DNA of 64,000 nucleotides, taken from NCBI RefSeq assembly GCF_014218275.1, contig NZ_AP023213.1:1466001-1530000 (forward strand). Reading direction: 5' to 3'. The stretch is from Citrifermentans bremense. Its GTDB lineage: Bacteria; Desulfobacterota; Desulfuromonadia; Geobacterales; Geobacteraceae. This document shows, piece after piece, positions 4,926-53,784 of this stretch. Below the pieces are notes generated by a model that had not been told where the DNA came from, searched no databases, and saw only the letters and a list, made by a program, of their open reading frames with translations. The position numbers were made by a program, and so were the translations under genes. How positions within the stretch are numbered: the stretch's first letter is position 1; the number at the start of each line of letters is the position of its first letter.

Positions 4926-5008
4926 CCAGCCGGCGGGCCGCTCTTCTTCTGCTGCTTTCCTTTTCCAGCAGCCGCGGCGTCACCAGTCGATTTCCCCCTC
5001 CCTGACCC

Positions 5009-5029
5009 TCCCCCTCCAGGGGAGGGGGA
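5009..5029. repeat. GC-rich intergenic inverted repeat
   Basis: TCCCCCTCC and GGAGGGGGA form a 9-bp stem with a 3-base loop between rbgA and the sensor kinase gene. Similar C-run/G-run palindromes occur at 38241-38260 and around 46714-46747, so this is a dispersed repeat class rather than a dedicated terminator. Confidence 0.55.
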
Positions 5030-5063
5030 AGAGCTAGACCCTATCAGCAGCACCGGGATCAGC

Positions 5064-6857
5064 ATGGGAACATTCCTTCAGACAGCATCCCTTTTCTTTG
5101 CAGGACCCACCTTGCCGTGCCGCCGGCGGCAGCCTTTGGTCGTCCTGGCCCAGATGCTCCTTTGGGCCCTGCTCGTCGTTCCCGTCTGCGGCGCCGCCGA
5201 ATCTGCGGCCGGCGTCAGGACCGTCATCGTCGGCGGCGACCGCGACTACCCCCCTTACGAGTTCATCGACAAATCGGGCCACCCTGCCGGCTACAACGTG
5301 GATCTCACCCGGGCCATAGCCGACGTCATGGGGATGAAGGTCGAATTCCGCCTGGGCGGCTGGTCCGGGATGCGCAGCGCGCTGCAAAGCGGGAAGGTGG
5401 ACGTGCTGCAGGGGATGTCGTACTCGCAGGAGCGCTCCTCCGAAGTCGACTTTTCCGTCCCCCATGCCGTCGTCAACCATGCAGTCTTCGCCCGCAAGGA
5501 CTCCCCCTACGTCTCATCGCTTGATGATCTCAAGGGTAAGACGGTGGCGGTGCATCGGGCGGGAATCATGCACGACTATCTGGTCCGGCAAGGGGTGGGG
5601 GGGAAGCTGACCCTGACCGATACTCCGGCCGACGCACTCAGGATGGTCGCTTCCGGCCGCGCCGACTTCGCCGTGGTTGCCATCGTTCCCGGTATGTACA
5701 TGATCCGGGAGCTGAAGCTCTCCAACCTTGTCCCGGTGCTGCGCAACGTCGCCACCCATCGCTACTGCTACGCGGTGAAGAAGGGGAACGCGGAGCTCTT
5801 GTCCCGCTTCAACGAGGGGCTGGCGATACTGAAGAAGACCGGCCAGTACGACGCGATCCACAACAGGTGGCTCGGCGTCGTGGAGCCGCAGACGATAGAC
5901 TGGTGGACCTTCGCGAAGTACGCGGCGGTCGTGGTGGTGCCGCTCGTGCTCCTTCTGGGCGGTTTCGCCCTCTGGTCCCGCACCCTGCACCGTCAGGTCG
6001 CCCTGCGCACGGCGGACCTCACCCGCGAGATCGCCGAAAGGCGCCAGGTGGAGGAGGAGCTCCGCCTGAACCAGCAGCAACTGGTGCAGGCGGACAAGAT
6101 GGCTGCCCTGGGGGTGCTGGTTTCCGGCGTCGCCCACGAGATCAACAACCCGACCGGCGTCATCCTTCTCGAGGTCCCGATCCTGAAGCGGTTCCATGAC
6201 GACTCCGTGAAGATCCTGGAGCGCTACTACGAGGAGAACGGAGACTTCAGCTGCGGCGGGCTCCCCTATTCACGGATGCGCCAGGAGATCCCCAGGTCCC
6301 TGGAGAAGATCCAGGACGCCGGCAAGCGTATCAAGCGCATCGTGGCCGACCTGAAGGATTTCGCCCGCCGGGACGAGACCGACTGCAACGAGATCCTGGA
6401 TCTGAACGCGGCGGCCAAAGCGGCGGTGCGCCTGGTCGAGCCGACCATCCACAAGGCGACCACGCGCTTCAGCGCCGAGTACCGCAAGTCGCTGCCGCGC
6501 ATCCGTGGGAACCGCCAGCGCATCGAGCAGGTGCTGGTCAACCTGATACTTAACGCCTGCCAGGCGCTTCCCGACCCGGAGCGGGCCATCGAGCTGACCA
6601 CCTGGCACGACGTTTTCCGCAACCAGGTGGTCCTGCGCCTGCGGGACCAGGGCACGGGGATCGCCCCCGAGCACCTGTCGCGCCTGACCGACCCGTTTTT
6701 CACCACAAAACAGGACCAGGGGGGGACCGGCCTCGGGCTCTCGGTCTCGGCGGGGATCGTCAAGGAGCATGGCGGGAACCTGCAATTCGAGTCGAACGGG
6801 GAGGGGACCACGGTCACCCTGACCCTGCCGGTGTACCACGAGGAGAACAACGCATGA
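5064..6857 (+). CDS. Sensor histidine kinase with periplasmic solute-binding domain
   Basis: A 597-residue hybrid receptor. A signal-like hydrophobic segment (residues about 25-43) precedes a SBP_bac_3 domain (about 52-272, with RDYPPYEFIDKSG and the DFSVP strand). One membrane helix follows at about 284-304, then a short coiled linker, an HisKA box (VAHEINNP, His358), and a HATPase_c domain with N box NLILNACQAL, G1 DQGTGI and G2 GGTGLGLSV. It probably senses a small solute directly, as amino-acid-binding receptors do. Its stop overlaps the start of the response regulator by 4 bp, so the pair is translationally coupled. Given the dicarboxylate transporter downstream, a C4-dicarboxylate signal is plausible but not shown. 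The exact start is uncertain within the signal region. Confidence 0.88.
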   Translation: MGTFLQTASLFFAGPTLPCRRRQPLVVLAQMLLWALLVVPVCGAAESAAGVRTVIVGGDRDYPPYEFIDKSGHPAGYNVDLTRAIADVMGMKVEFRLGGWSGMRSALQSGKVDVLQGMSYSQERSSEVDFSVPHAVVNHAVFARKDSPYVSSLDDLKGKTVAVHRAGIMHDYLVRQGVGGKLTLTDTPADALRMVASGRADFAVVAIVPGMYMIRELKLSNLVPVLRNVATHRYCYAVKKGNAELLSRFNEGLAILKKTGQYDAIHNRWLGVVEPQTIDWWTFAKYAAVVVVPLVLLLGGFALWSRTLHRQVALRTADLTREIAERRQVEEELRLNQQQLVQADKMAALGVLVSGVAHEINNPTGVILLEVPILKRFHDDSVKILERYYEENGDFSCGGLPYSRMRQEIPRSLEKIQDAGKRIKRIVADLKDFARRDETDCNEILDLNAAAKAAVRLVEPTIHKATTRFSAEYRKSLPRIRGNRQRIEQVLVNLILNACQALPDPERAIELTTWHDVFRNQVVLRLRDQGTGIAPEHLSRLTDPFFTTKQDQGGTGLGLSVSAGIVKEHGGNLQFESNGEGTTVTLTLPVYHEENNA

Positions 6858-49981: not shown

Positions 49982-50761
49982 ATGATCTATGTTACCGGCG
50001 ACTTGCACGGCGGCGAAACCTCTTGGCATGTGTCGTCTGCGAATTTCAAACCTGCGAAAAAAGGCGATATTGTGCTGTGCTGTGGCGATTTGGGTGGGGT
50101 CTGGTACCACGACTACCACCTGAATCAGGACCATAGGCGCCAGGAGGATTACTTTCTTGAATCACGACTTCGGCAGCGGGTGACTTGGTTGGCCGTGGAC
50201 GGGAATCATGAAAACTTCGCGCGGCTGTTCGGCGGAGAGTTTCCCCTGGTGGATCTGTACGGTGGCCACGCCTACCAAGTCCGTAAGAATGTTTTCTATC
50301 TCAAACGCGGTGAGGTCTTCACAATCGAAGGTGAGACATTTCTCGCTTTTGGTGGAGCAACCAGCAATGACCGGTTCGGCGCCAAGATACCCTCGCTTGG
50401 TTGGGAAGGTGGCTATGACTACCTACCACCCCGAAAGGAGGGGATAAATTGGTGGCCGGAAGAACTGCCAACACAAGAAGATTATGACAACGCCTGCCGC
50501 AACTTGGACAGGGTAGGTTGGGTTGTCGATCACATCGTAACCCACACATGTCCGGCCAGTCTGCGCCCGCAATTTAAATCGGGACATGGTTCTGACCCGA
50601 CCGAGGACATATTGCAAAAGTTGTACGAGCGACTGACCTTTGGAAGTTGGCATTTCGGCCACCTGCATATCGACAAGCAGGTGGGCAAACTCACGTGCCA
50701 CTATAATACGGTAAAGCGGCTGGCGAAAAACACAGCCCCTGAAATACAGTCATCCTCCTGA
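49982..50761 (+). CDS. Metallophosphoesterase
   Basis: 259 residues of the calcineurin-like fold, with metal-site motifs in order: GDLHG (6-10), GDLGG (about 36), GNHENF (about 72), a His in IVTHTCPA and GHLHID near the C-terminus. AAGGGACG lies before ATG 49982. Substrate unknown: the family includes phosphatases, nucleases and phosphodiesterases. Part of the island; function there is not known. Confidence 0.85.
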   Translation: MIYVTGDLHGGETSWHVSSANFKPAKKGDIVLCCGDLGGVWYHDYHLNQDHRRQEDYFLESRLRQRVTWLAVDGNHENFARLFGGEFPLVDLYGGHAYQVRKNVFYLKRGEVFTIEGETFLAFGGATSNDRFGAKIPSLGWEGGYDYLPPRKEGINWWPEELPTQEDYDNACRNLDRVGWVVDHIVTHTCPASLRPQFKSGHGSDPTEDILQKLYERLTFGSWHFGHLHIDKQVGKLTCHYNTVKRLAKNTAPEIQSSS

Positions 50762-51036
50762 AGGGATGGAGCTACTGGGATTGCAGTGGCTCTCGTACAA
50801 GAATGCCCTCAGGTAGAAAGTGAGCCTGAGGGCTCCCTCCTTCAAGAATCTGCTTTGGTGTGCATTGAGAAGGTGCTGTCAGGCCGGATTCAATTGCCAC
50901 CTTCATGTCTCCACTGTGACATCAAAATGCATTTTTGATGCTCTCCCCTAATGCAAGCGACAGCTTGCCGGACCGCAGTTTTTCGCGGGCCGTCTATCCT
51001 GCCCCCCCCAACCAGTGTTGCTGCTGCATAAGGAGG

Positions 51037-51080
51037 CGGCCGTCTCTTTCATCAAGCGTAGCGTGAGAAAGAGACGGCCG
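51037..51080. repeat. 14-bp inverted repeat with 16-base loop
   Basis: CGGCCGTCTCTTTC (51037-51050) and GAAAGAGACGGCCG (51067-51080) are perfect arms. No T-run follows. Confidence 0.85.
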
Positions 51081-51108
51081 GCAATTCCACAATGCTGCCA
51101 ACATGTTA

Positions 51109-51135
51109 GCGCCGAATCTCTGAGAGATTCGGCGC
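51109..51135. repeat. 12-bp inverted repeat with 3-base loop
   Basis: GCGCCGAATCTC and GAGATTCGGCGC flank TGA. Confidence 0.85.
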
Positions 51136-51403
51136 ACTTCGAAATTCTCAATTTCGATCTTCCCGTCACCCTGCACTAGTACAATTCCGCGCGTTGCGCG
51201 TTTCCATATGACTCATCCCCAGCCTGTCCCGATTGCGATCGGGGCGGCAAATGTCACGCAGGAATGCCCCTGATGGGGATCCTCGCCTTACGAGACGAGG
51301 CTAAAACTTGCGGCGGCGCGGACCAGTATGGCCCGCGTTCGGTGGTTTTCAAACTGAAGACCATAGACACCTACACTCAACAGCATCTGCTGGGGCTAGG
51401 CGG

Positions 51404-51457
51404 TGTGCTGCTGCATGCGCCCCTGATTGCTAAATCAGGGGCGCATGCAGCAGCACA
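51404..51457. repeat. Long perfect hairpin before recombinase gene
   Basis: Arms of 24 bp (51405-51428 and 51433-51456) are perfect inverses with a 4-base loop; one further T-A pair extends it. The 3' side is 21 bp before the start codon of the recombinase, so as RNA it would sit near the ribosome site. Confidence 0.9.
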
Positions 51458-51477
51458 TCACTTACGGGAGGTCGATT

Positions 51478-52305
51478 ATGGGAACGCACATTGAGAAACT
51501 GCAGCAGGAAGCGCGGAACGTGGTAGGGAAGAATTGGTCGGGGGCGTCGCTGACGCGGGAAAAACTCCTGGGGAACCTGAATCGCATTGCTGAGTTCGCT
51601 GCCCAAAGGGGCTACCAGCATATGAATCAGATCGGCAGCAAGCTCGTGAATGACTTTTTTGAAAAGCTCAATTCCGAAGGGCTGTCTCCATCAACTATCA
51701 GCGGGTATGCTACGGCAATGAGGACGCTCGCCGGTGCTATCGGGAAGGCCAATATCGTGGCTCGAGACAACGCACCATTGGGAGGTTCCAGAGCCGGCAC
51801 TCGCCTCCAGCCGAAAGTGCCGAACGTGGAAAAGATGTTGGAGGTACGCCAAGCCCTCTACGAAAAGGCGGAGTGGTTGGGAGTCGCGCATGACCTTCGT
51901 GTTTCCTTTGGCACCCGGGTGAAAGAAAGTCTTCTCACCAAAACCACCTTTACTGATACCCTTGGCCGGACTTTACTCAAGATCGAAGGTACAAAAGGCG
52001 GTCGGCCTCGAAGCCTTACAGTTGATACACCTGAAAAAGTTGCAGCTGTGGCTGCTTTGAAAGAATATTTGACCGCGACGGGCGCAAAATCCTTGATCCC
52101 CGCCGGCATGACCCTTAAAGAGGCATATGACTTCCAGCGTAATGCTCTTCATCGCGCGGGTGCCACGAAAGAGAATGGTGCGAATGCGCACCTTGCCAGG
52201 CATGGGTACGCGCAGGCTTTGAAAGAGGCTGGCGTCGAACGCGAGGCCATTGCAATGGATCTCGGGCATGGCAGAACCGATGTCATCTCGCACTATTGCC
52301 GGTAG
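51478..52305 (+). CDS. Small tyrosine recombinase (phage integrase-like)
   Basis: 275 residues. N-terminal SAM-like domain (VNDFFEKLNSEGLSPSTISGYATAMRTL in order), then a catalytic domain in which R in HDLRVSFGTRVKESLL, K in EGTKGGRPR, HLARHGYAQAL (HxxR), GHGRTD and the Tyr in ISHYCR can be matched to the tyrosine-recombinase set. The layout resembles the short integrases of Pfam Integrase_1 type found on conjugative elements. GGGAGG lies before ATG 51478. It follows the hairpin-rich region, which may be its substrate; that is speculation. Confidence 0.8.
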   Translation: MGTHIEKLQQEARNVVGKNWSGASLTREKLLGNLNRIAEFAAQRGYQHMNQIGSKLVNDFFEKLNSEGLSPSTISGYATAMRTLAGAIGKANIVARDNAPLGGSRAGTRLQPKVPNVEKMLEVRQALYEKAEWLGVAHDLRVSFGTRVKESLLTKTTFTDTLGRTLLKIEGTKGGRPRSLTVDTPEKVAAVAALKEYLTATGAKSLIPAGMTLKEAYDFQRNALHRAGATKENGANAHLARHGYAQALKEAGVEREAIAMDLGHGRTDVISHYCR

Positions 52306-52340
52306 GCAATCAAACAAGTATTGGAGCCATCACAACGTGA

Positions 52341-52391
52341 ACGGGGCTCGTCTGTCACTGCAAAGCAGTGGCGGGCGAGCCCCGTTTTTTT
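52341..52391. terminator. Strong bidirectional terminator
   Basis: ACGGGGCTCG and CGAGCCCCGT form the outer stem, CACTGC and GCAGTG an inner one, then seven T residues on the plus strand. Ends the recombinase transcript and probably the repressor transcript. Confidence 0.85.
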
Positions 52392-52930: not shown

Positions 52931-53302
52931 ATGAACATGACTAGGAAAAAGGATGTGCGGCAATGGATAGGGCAGAACATGGAGATGACCTTGGACCAGC
53001 TTGATCCGGAGGTGGCCGATGTCCTGCACAATCTGGCAACTAACCAGACACGTGATTTTCTCGAAGTCGCGGAGCAGGGTTTGCGGCTGAGCAGGAAAAA
53101 GGCAAATCTTCCCCCGCCGAGTTCCCGGCGGGAGGTGGTCGCGTTCCTTATGGAATTCCGGATCAAAATCCAGATGGTACACGATCGCGTCAAAGGGGTG
53201 CCTGAGGTGCCGCTGTTCGACTTTGGCGGGTATCAGTTCTTGAACAGCAGGGCATTTGCAGAAGCAAAGATGCTTTACGGAGCAATGGGGGGGCTGGCAT
53301 GA
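52931..53302 (+). CDS. Hypothetical protein of the island cassette
   Basis: 123 residues, mainly helical and charged, no family recognised. GGGAGAG precedes ATG 52931. First gene of a four-gene unit under the divergent operator. Its stop overlaps the HNH gene by 4 bp. Confidence 0.7.
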   Translation: MNMTRKKDVRQWIGQNMEMTLDQLDPEVADVLHNLATNQTRDFLEVAEQGLRLSRKKANLPPPSSRREVVAFLMEFRIKIQMVHDRVKGVPEVPLFDFGGYQFLNSRAFAEAKMLYGAMGGLA

Positions 53303-53784
53303 CGGTTCTGGCTGTTGCTCGCAACAAGCATCGCTCTGAAAAAAACGGTGTCGACGGTAAAGGCAGGCAGGTTGTCGCGCCCGCATATGCTGCCGAACTC
53401 TCTATCGACAGCGGTGACCCTGCTTGGTTCGAGAAAGCACGCACGATTGTAACTTCGAGTGGTTACATAGAGCGGCTTCTTCGCGTTGGGAAAACGGTAG
53501 TCCGGCGAATGGAGCACATCATCGTGTGGGAAATGGTAAACGGGAAAAAGGTTCCGAAGGGATGGGTTGTCCACCATGTAAACGAGCGGAAGGACGACAA
53601 CGATCCTTTGAACCTTGTAGCACTGCCACCAAGACTGCACAGGGAACTCCACGTGAGGCTTCGCGAGCTGTCAAACGAGTGTAATGGGCTTCTTCACGCA
53701 GTGCGCAGGCTGGAACTGACTCAGGAACATGTGGTGCGCGCAACACGCCTGGATGAGCTTAGAAAATACTGGTTCGGAGAATGA
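53299..53784 (+). CDS. HNH endonuclease-like protein
   Basis: 161 residues. HNH core: MEHIIVWEMVNGKKVPKGW, VVHHVNERKDDNDPLNLVAL, RLHRELH, with the paired His, Asn and His in HNH_3-type order. N-terminal part (first 60 residues) is unassigned. ATGA overlap with the preceding gene. May be a homing or phage-packaging-type nuclease; its DNA target is unknown. Confidence 0.8.
   Translation: MTVLAVARNKHRSEKNGVDGKGRQVVAPAYAAELSIDSGDPAWFEKARTIVTSSGYIERLLRVGKTVVRRMEHIIVWEMVNGKKVPKGWVVHHVNERKDDNDPLNLVALPPRLHRELHVRLRELSNECNGLLHAVRRLELTQEHVVRATRLDELRKYWFGE

What the first reader, a model, noticed from the sequence alone, without database searches (positions are those of the whole stretch)
50762..51477. 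Hairpin-dense non-coding block inside the island
About 500 bp (50950-51460) carry at least six inverted repeats, three of them perfect with arms of 12, 14 and 24 bp, with no gene. This is far above chance for random DNA of this size. It directly precedes a tyrosine recombinase gene. Explanations: an unknown structured RNA, a folded single-stranded DNA recombination or transfer site, or decayed repeat elements. None is proven.
Basis: partly seen in the sequence, partly recalled or inferred. Interest (0 to 1): 0.72.

Follow-up and report, generated by a model that had tools for sequence, protein, structure and literature searches.

The report
Structured RNA module beside a recombinase
The hairpin block is a real, conserved folded element: a palindrome plus an RNA-like fold resembling the little-known EFASI RNA of gut bacteria, and it travels with one family of DNA-cutting recombinases on plasmids and genomic islands of distant bacteria, so the two probably work together.

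Summary
In detail: 6 perfect inverted repeats with arms of 8 bp or more in 716 bp, against 0.3 in shuffles. It is not decayed repeats. Two conserved parts lie upstream of a PF12835 (Integrase_1) tyrosine recombinase. (1) A palindrome, P1 (51037-51080, stem core GTCTCT). A P1-like palindrome lies upstream of 41 of 45 homologous recombinase genes, against 0 of 402 other stretches of the same loci. (2) A multibranched core (51217-51395) holding CTCAAC, closed by a long-range helix. The block carries compensatory changes, and the thermodynamic centroid gives the same core.
In 7 of 8 enterobacterial loci scanned, the same place upstream of the same recombinase family holds Rfam's EFASI RNA, with the same order of helices and the same CUCAAC. 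The window itself scores nothing against the EFASI model, so it is EFASI-like, not a member by Rfam's test.
Flanks change between islands while the module persists. I favour an RNA leader or partner of the recombinase, with P1 as a DNA-level site. Function is inferred, not shown. Novelty: new variant of a known, unexplained kind.

The parts
51037..51080 (.). P1 palindrome: perfect 14-bp stem CGGCCGTCTCTTTC/GAAAGAGACGGCCG, 16-nt loop; core GTCTCT in mid-stem
   Evidence: P1-like palindromes upstream of 41 of 45 recombinase homologues and in 0 of 402 control stretches
51109..51135 (+). hairpin P2 (13-bp perfect stem); two A-T to G-C double changes in G007
51139..51157 (+). hairpin P3 (8-bp stem); broken in G007, so kept only in the nearest relatives
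51188..51200 (+). hairpin P4 (5-bp stem CGCGC/GCGCG), invariant in the 5 sequences of clade C
51217..51395 (+). EFASI-like core, closed by long-range helix alpha (51217-51223 CCCCAGC with 51389-51395 GCTGGGG)
   Evidence: comparative model; same helices in the thermodynamic centroid; covariance model R1, built from this clade, hits 5 of 58 related genomes, each time in this module
51224..51247 (+). core hairpin hp1 (10 pairs, two of them U.G, loop TGCG), directly 3' of the alpha 5' strand
   Evidence: one C-G to U-A double change, one-sided changes through G.U
51252..51369 (+). closing stem gamma (51252-51255 UGUC with 51366-51369 GACA) around hairpins h2 51267-51278, h3 51281-51300, h4 51317-51337, h5 51343-51363
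   Evidence: gamma reads GGUC/GACC in the distant hit L037 (read by eye)
51371..51381 (+). CTACACTCAAC motif, unpaired in the model between gamma and the alpha 3' strand; CUCAAC is also conserved in EFASI
51404..51457 (+). 25-bp perfect hairpin Pt between core and Shine-Dalgarno; 8 pairs with double changes; a long perfect hairpin stands at the same place in an E. coli ICE (L109, by eye)
51478..52305 (+). tyrosine recombinase, PF12835 Integrase_1, 275 aa; R147, K149, K173, H238, R241, H264, Y273 invariant in 9 aligned homologues
52340..52386 (+). 22-bp imperfect hairpin followed by a T run: probable intrinsic terminator of the recombinase gene

Best explanation
Shown: the block is a conserved two-part module tied to one tyrosine-recombinase family. 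Part 1 is a palindrome (P1) with a GTC[AT][CG]T core in its stem. Part 2 is a folded core of about 180 nt (helix alpha, hairpin hp1, closing stem gamma around several hairpins, unpaired CUCAAC) upstream of the recombinase start. Inferred: the core acts as RNA, made on the recombinase's strand, and is an EFASI-like leader or partner of the recombinase. In several Desulfuromonad loci the terminal hairpin that holds the alpha 3' strand stands a few nucleotides before the Shine-Dalgarno sequence (by eye; in the window the Pt hairpin lies between), so the most likely action is in cis: the fold sets how much recombinase is translated, and binding of the recombinase or another ligand would switch it. 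P1 is inferred to be a DNA-level element, a binding or recombination site of the recombinase, because its duplex sequence is what is conserved. Confidence: about 0.85 that it is a real EFASI-like structured element paired with the recombinase, about 0.4 that cis control is its main action.
For: P1-like palindrome in 41 of 45 loci, 2 of 900 shuffles, 0 of 402 other stretches, and in 8 of 12 loci not seen before the rule was set. Named structure on five clade-C sequences: 97.6% of cells paired, 15 of 93 pairs with double changes (shuffles 4.8, 0 of 500 as high; slid 1-3). Clade H: 37 of 92 pairs predicted by RNAalifold have double changes (that program favours such pairs). Core helices in L025 and G007: 8 G.U cells, 4 of them changes, and 0 A.C of 90. 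Folded alone, the + strand gives the same core helices as its centroid (z -2.83). A model of the window's clade finds the core upstream of a recombinase 35% identical to the window's (G047, L037; identity) as its only outside hit below E 0.1 in 624 kb, and a second model that includes it finds G082 at 3.9e-12. EFASI lies between P1 and the recombinase in 7 of 10 loci of other classes scanned, with a long-range helix, hp1, a closing stem and CUCAAC in the same order. The module persists while flanks change. EFASI and STAXI were detected by RT-qPCR in vesicles of one E. coli strain (PMC12370729, passages).
Against: No Rfam EFASI or STAXI match in the window at gathering or at E up to 5, in 8 loci at gathering (one of them the window's own) or in 6 Desulfuromonad loci at E up to 5, so the tie to EFASI rests on place and architecture, not on a score. 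Alpha and gamma are invariant in the window's own clade. A loose permutation test of alpha over 38 loci failed (556 of 5000); only a stricter rule passed (10 of 10000), and that rule missed alpha in the window's clade. The minus strand folds about as well (z -2.48). G.U against A.C over all helices found by a general scan was nearly even (122 to 97), and the core count leans towards G.U because the structure was drawn on the window's own pairs. No promoter-like site was found on the + strand in 50700-51500. Shine-Dalgarno pairing is weakly supported and confounded by a C-rich stretch. The clade-C models did not reach most other clades.
Confidence: 0.5

Rival explanations
1. The whole block is a DNA recombination site of the recombinase, acting as folded single-stranded DNA or as a double-stranded site with accessory sequences (attI/attC-like, or a multimer-resolution site for plasmids and circular islands).
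For: P1 stems in 34 of 35 loci: 514 Watson-Crick cells (204 of these by construction of the search), 6 G.T, 4 A.C, 11 other, with the conserved sequence inside the duplex, as in a site read by a DNA-binding protein. The carriers are plasmids, ICEs and islands. CTCAAC fits the RYYYAAC inverse core of integrons (recalled, from no call). Weinberg 2010 raised single-stranded DNA for the neighbouring STAXI motif, though its UUCG loops argued for RNA (PMC2864571, passage).
Against: P1 spacers vary from 2 to 138 nt, unlike a strand-exchange site. The P1 pattern and CCTACACTCAAC each occur once in the genome at full match, so no partner site was seen. The core shows G.U and no A.C. The recombinase is far below the integron-integrase model's cut-off (23.8 against 265 bits).
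Confidence: 0.3
2. The EFASI-like RNA works in trans: it binds the recombinase as an RNA partner, or regulates other messages as a small RNA.
For: EFASI is described as a likely trans-acting small RNA (PMC12370729, table quoting Rfam, passage). P1 and the recombinase go together across classes. Long perfect hairpins between core and gene in the window and in L109 could be processing sites.
Against: Nothing tests binding or targets. In the 5 of 58 genomes where model R1 hits, the core is directly upstream of the recombinase on its strand, as expected also of a leader.
Confidence: 0.2
3. Ordinary transcription signals and decayed mobile-element ends that happen to be rich in inverted repeats.
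For: A probable terminator follows the recombinase gene, terminator-like hairpins stand upstream of P1 in some relatives (by eye), and a weak 5-pair terminator-like match overlaps the left arm of P1.
Against: Compensatory changes, conserved order, and P1 in 41 of 45 loci. No T run follows P1 in the window.
Confidence: 0.03

Closest known systems
EFASI RNA (Rfam RF02957)
   Same: Same place upstream of the same recombinase family; long-range helix enclosing hp1, a closing stem with hairpins, unpaired CUCAAC, then the 3' strand of the long-range helix.
   Different: No score against the Rfam model; alpha of 7 pairs in place of 12; more hairpins inside gamma; host in Geobacterales, not Enterobacteriaceae; no STAXI match upstream.
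STAXI RNA (Rfam RF01728)
   Same: Lies upstream of P1 in 7 of the 10 loci of other classes scanned.
   Different: No match in the window; STAXI is a pseudoknot repeated two or three times, with frequent UUCG loops.
Integron attI/attC with IntI
   Same: A tyrosine recombinase next to conserved hairpins; CTCAAC fits the RYYYAAC consensus (recalled).
   Different: Not an IntI by model score, no second copy of the P1 pattern, no attC boxes seen in P1.
IS110-family bridge RNA
   Same: A structured non-coding RNA beside a recombinase gene on mobile DNA (recalled).
   Different: Tyrosine recombinase in place of a DEDD enzyme; no guide loops identified; programmability untested.

Membership tests
EFASI RNA RF02957 | Reaches Rfam gathering score (51.2 bits) | tested here: not met
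   No match in the window at gathering or at E up to 5; none in 8 loci at gathering or 6 at E up to 5
EFASI RNA RF02957 | Long-range helix enclosing the element | tested here: met
   alpha 51217-51223/51389-51395, paired in 5 of 5 sequences but without variation; in the centroid
EFASI RNA RF02957 | hp1, then a closing stem with hairpins, then CUCAAC | tested here: met
EFASI RNA RF02957 | Upstream of an integrase gene | tested here: met
EFASI RNA RF02957 | Downstream of a STAXI motif | tested here: not met
   No STAXI match in the window
EFASI RNA RF02957 | Made as RNA | not testable with these tools
   No expression data
Integron attI/attC with IntI | Recombinase is an integron integrase | tested here: not met
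   TIGR02249 23.8 bits against a cut-off of 265
Integron attI/attC with IntI | Array of attC-like sites | tested here: inconclusive
   P1 pattern found once in the genome; no attC model was run
IS110 bridge RNA | DEDD transposase of the IS110 family | tested here: not met
   Pfam gives tyrosine-recombinase families only
PF12835 Integrase_1 tyrosine recombinase | Pfam gathering score | tested here: met
   31.7 bits against 23
PF12835 Integrase_1 tyrosine recombinase | Catalytic R, K, H-x-x-R, H, Y conserved | tested here: met
   Invariant in 9 homologues; the catalytic roles are recalled
oriT or single-strand origin | Adjacent relaxase or Rep gene | tested here: not met
   None among the 9 island proteins scanned against Pfam, 3 of which matched nothing

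The most novel reading that the evidence does not exclude
A tyrosine recombinase that works as a ribonucleoprotein: the EFASI-like RNA binds the recombinase and licenses or guides its action at DNA sites such as P1, a tyrosine-recombinase counterpart of the bridge-RNA recombinases, spread over plasmids, ICEs and islands of several proteobacterial classes and Desulfobacterota.
Probability: 0.1. Interest if true: 0.95.

Novelty: new variant of a known kind. Interest (0 to 1): 0.6.

Why it matters
EFASI and STAXI are orphan RNAs described from Enterobacteria, with no known function. The comparison here suggests that EFASI is the enterobacterial branch of a much wider module tied to one tyrosine-recombinase family from Geomonas to E. 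coli and Agrobacterium, and it adds a part that the passages I read on EFASI do not mention, the P1 palindrome. That turns 'an RNA often found near integrases' into a testable pairing: does the recombinase bind the RNA, the palindrome or both? If the RNA controls or assists recombination, it would be a new way for mobile elements to govern a tyrosine recombinase.

Tried and rejected
Intrinsic terminator as the explanation of P1: no T run follows it in the window; a weak terminator-like match overlaps only its left arm. Dispersed repeats: single copy. Sigma-70 -10 box for TACACT: no conserved -35 by eye, and the only promoter-like site in 50700-51500 is on the other strand. Known Rfam family: none in the window. 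Island ends: no duplicate of the tRNA-Met end was found in the window. Viral contigs: none with one homologue as query, 7 weak relatives with the alignment, not analysed. Loose alpha test: not significant. Strand choice by G.U against A.C over all helices: inconclusive (122 to 97). Four-base hairpin loops of C(UNCG)G type, 14 of 96 on the + strand, are nearly all one hairpin with loop TGCG, so I give them little weight. Shine-Dalgarno pairing: weak. A mixed alignment of four clades gave no common fold (RNAalifold -2.2 kcal/mol), so clades were compared by architecture and by covariance search. A model search of 701 nt of L085 (clade G) with filters off found no match to the core. The 7-of-58 pattern search is telling by location only: the backward control pattern gave 13 places in 10 genomes. 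STAXI counterparts in Desulfuromonads (promoter, then terminator, upstream of P1 in several loci) were seen by eye only.

Full report
What is there. The window lies in a Geomonas-like genome: the nearest named relatives of its recombinase locus are Geomonas azotofigens and G. anaerohicana. Between a calcineurin-like phosphoesterase gene (49982-50761) and a PF12835 tyrosine recombinase (51478-52305) lies a gene-free block. Its inverted repeats are far above chance: 6 with arms of 8 bp or more against 0.31 in shuffles, and the two top tiles of 177 both overlap it.

Relatives of the recombinase. The protein has a match in 18 of 58 related genomes at E up to 0.001 and, with a nine-row alignment (A1), in 33 of 141 genomes of the order at E up to 1e-15, but in only 7 of 395 drawn from the phylum (which counts the window's own genome). 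It also occurs on plasmids: 56 records with the window's protein as query, 50 with the E. coli homologue, 185 with the Agrobacterium homologue. The catalytic residues are invariant in the nine aligned proteins. Among 38 loci compared, the gene shares its neighbourhood with different recombinases: one family (F1) in 11 loci, the tRNA-Met type integrase (F3, Pfam Phage_integrase) in 7, another family (F5) in 5; I read F1 as a tyrosine and F5 as a serine recombinase by eye. DNA homology between modules of different islands usually starts near P1 (about -350 to -530 from the start codon) and ends in or soon after the recombinase gene; some pairs share much more, and a few start later.

P1. By one fixed rule (left arm with GTC[AT][CG]T, perfect arm of 9 or more, loop up to 220, within 1300 nt upstream) P1 occurs in 41 of 45 loci, in 2 of 900 shuffled upstream regions and in 0 of 402 other stretches of the same loci. 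Two gene fragments (G024, G116) and one locus with little upstream sequence (L101) were left out before counting. The four misses are G047 and G121b, which by eye have variants, and L104 and L107 (Burkholderia-type plasmids), which have none. In 26 further loci the rule hits 21. Fourteen of these had already been looked at; of the 12 unseen ones it hits 8, missing G342a, G342b, G365 (560 nt held) and Glaesserella. The fifth miss, L122, has one mismatch by eye. The exact pattern CGTCTCTTN{6,35}AAGAGACG occurs in 7 of 58 genomes, once each, all beside this recombinase, while the backward control pattern gave 13 places in 10 genomes. P1 stems are nearly all Watson-Crick: 514 cells, 204 of them by construction, with 6 G.T, 4 A.C and 11 other, in 34 of 35 loci.

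The core. In the window's clade (own, G017, L025, L026, G007) a named structure of 93 pairs has 97.6% of cells paired and 15 pairs with changes on both sides, against 4.8 in shuffles (0 of 500 as high) and 1-3 in slid versions. Eight of the 15 are in the 25-bp hairpin Pt, two in P2 and five in the core. Alpha and gamma do not vary inside this clade. In the core, counted on L025 and G007, 8 of 90 cells are G.U (4 of them changes from the window's pair) and none A.C; the count leans towards G.U because the structure was drawn on the window's pairs. Folded alone, the + strand gives as centroid alpha, hp1, gamma and h2 to h5 (z -2.83); the minus strand folds similarly (z -2.48). In clade H 37 of 92 pairs predicted by RNAalifold have double changes. 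Gamma reads GGUC/GACC against UGUC/GACA in the distant relative G047, found by a covariance model of the window's clade as the only non-member below E 0.1 in 624 kb. A second model that includes it finds the core of G082 at 3.9e-12. The models did not reach the other clades, and a search of L085 with filters off found nothing. Alpha strands differ between clades but tend to keep complementarity: with the 5' strand required to abut a hairpin, cognate pairing over 38 loci (14 of 52 left out as near-duplicates, disrupted or without a clear motif or room for it) exceeded permuted pairing (10 of 10000; Wilcoxon over clades 0.0026). A looser rule did not (556 of 5000), and the strict rule failed to pick alpha in the window itself.

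Link to EFASI. Ten loci from other classes (nine gammaproteobacterial, one alphaproteobacterial) were scanned against Rfam. Seven carry EFASI RNA between P1 and the recombinase (L103, L109, L122, L124, L130, L131, L132; P1 of L122 by eye), and seven carry STAXI upstream (L103, L105, L109, L122, L124, L131, L132; L131 only just above the cut-off). Agrobacterium (L102) and Thiothrix (L133) carry neither by score. The EFASI consensus has a long-range helix, hp1, a closing stem around hairpins, ACCUCAACA and the 3' strand of the long helix, in that order, as in the window. No EFASI match was found in the window or in six Desulfuromonad loci even at E up to 5. I therefore call it EFASI-like, not a member. 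Of the literature I read passages only: Weinberg 2010 on STAXI (PMC2864571) and the 2025 vesicle paper on EFASI and STAXI (PMC12370729). The 2017 paper that I recall as the source of EFASI is not held. My searches for EFASI (one paper), STAXI with integrase (two papers), PF12835 (listing only) and tyrosine recombinase with non-coding RNA terms (none) showed no work that links this recombinase family to P1 or extends EFASI to Desulfuromonads. The library lacks most subscription journals.

How it probably works. The core behaves like an RNA: pairs change in step or through G.U, and the same architecture is a named RNA elsewhere. Its place before the start codon, on the same strand, favours control in cis (5 of 5 genomes hit among 58 by model R1); pairing of the C-rich stretch before alpha with the Shine-Dalgarno sequence is suggestive at best, and in the window the Pt hairpin lies between core and gene. 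P1 behaves more like duplex DNA read by a protein. A division of labour, with P1 as the recombinase's DNA element and the core as the leader or partner that sets its dose or activity, explains both, but no step of function has been shown. The main rivals are a pure DNA recombination site and a trans-acting RNA partner.

Verdict. The finding is real and more interesting than a chance cluster of hairpins. It is a new, unrecognised variant of an orphan RNA kind, with an added conserved palindrome, tied to one recombinase family across distant bacteria.

Noticed in passing
L109:2824-2979 and 4987-5145: An E. coli chromosomal ICE carries two STAXI copies, one before the recombinase module and one before another operon of the element.
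   Followed up: partly
L104:1839-3037 and L107:1326-2794: Burkholderia-type plasmids have 1.2-1.5 kb without annotated genes upstream of a longer PF12835-like recombinase (annotated as integrase domain-containing), but no P1 was found there.
   Followed up: partly
L098 and L096, roughly 800 to 450 nt upstream of the recombinase: Clade H shows a repeated hairpin with variable stem and similar loop (GAAGTTGAAGCG..AGCGGAAACGTA), two copies in G111 and G114 (by eye).
   Followed up: no
L124, L126, L130, L131, about 10 nt before the alpha 5' strand: Enterobacterial copies have an AAGGAG stretch just before the EFASI core, with no conserved open frame after it (by eye).
   Followed up: no
L036:11245-12008: The recombinase gene of G044 is interrupted by a stop codon while its upstream module looks intact; G024 and G116 hold only fragments of the gene.
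   Followed up: no
window:47615-49045: tRNA-Met followed by a tyrosine integrase probably marks the left end of the island; no duplicate of the tRNA end was found to its right in the window.
   Followed up: partly
window:52413-52769 and 53299-53784: Downstream cargo: a Cro/CI-type regulator and an HNH endonuclease.
   Followed up: no
L131:342-529: isrK and C4 antisense RNAs upstream of the module on a Salmonella plasmid.
   Followed up: no
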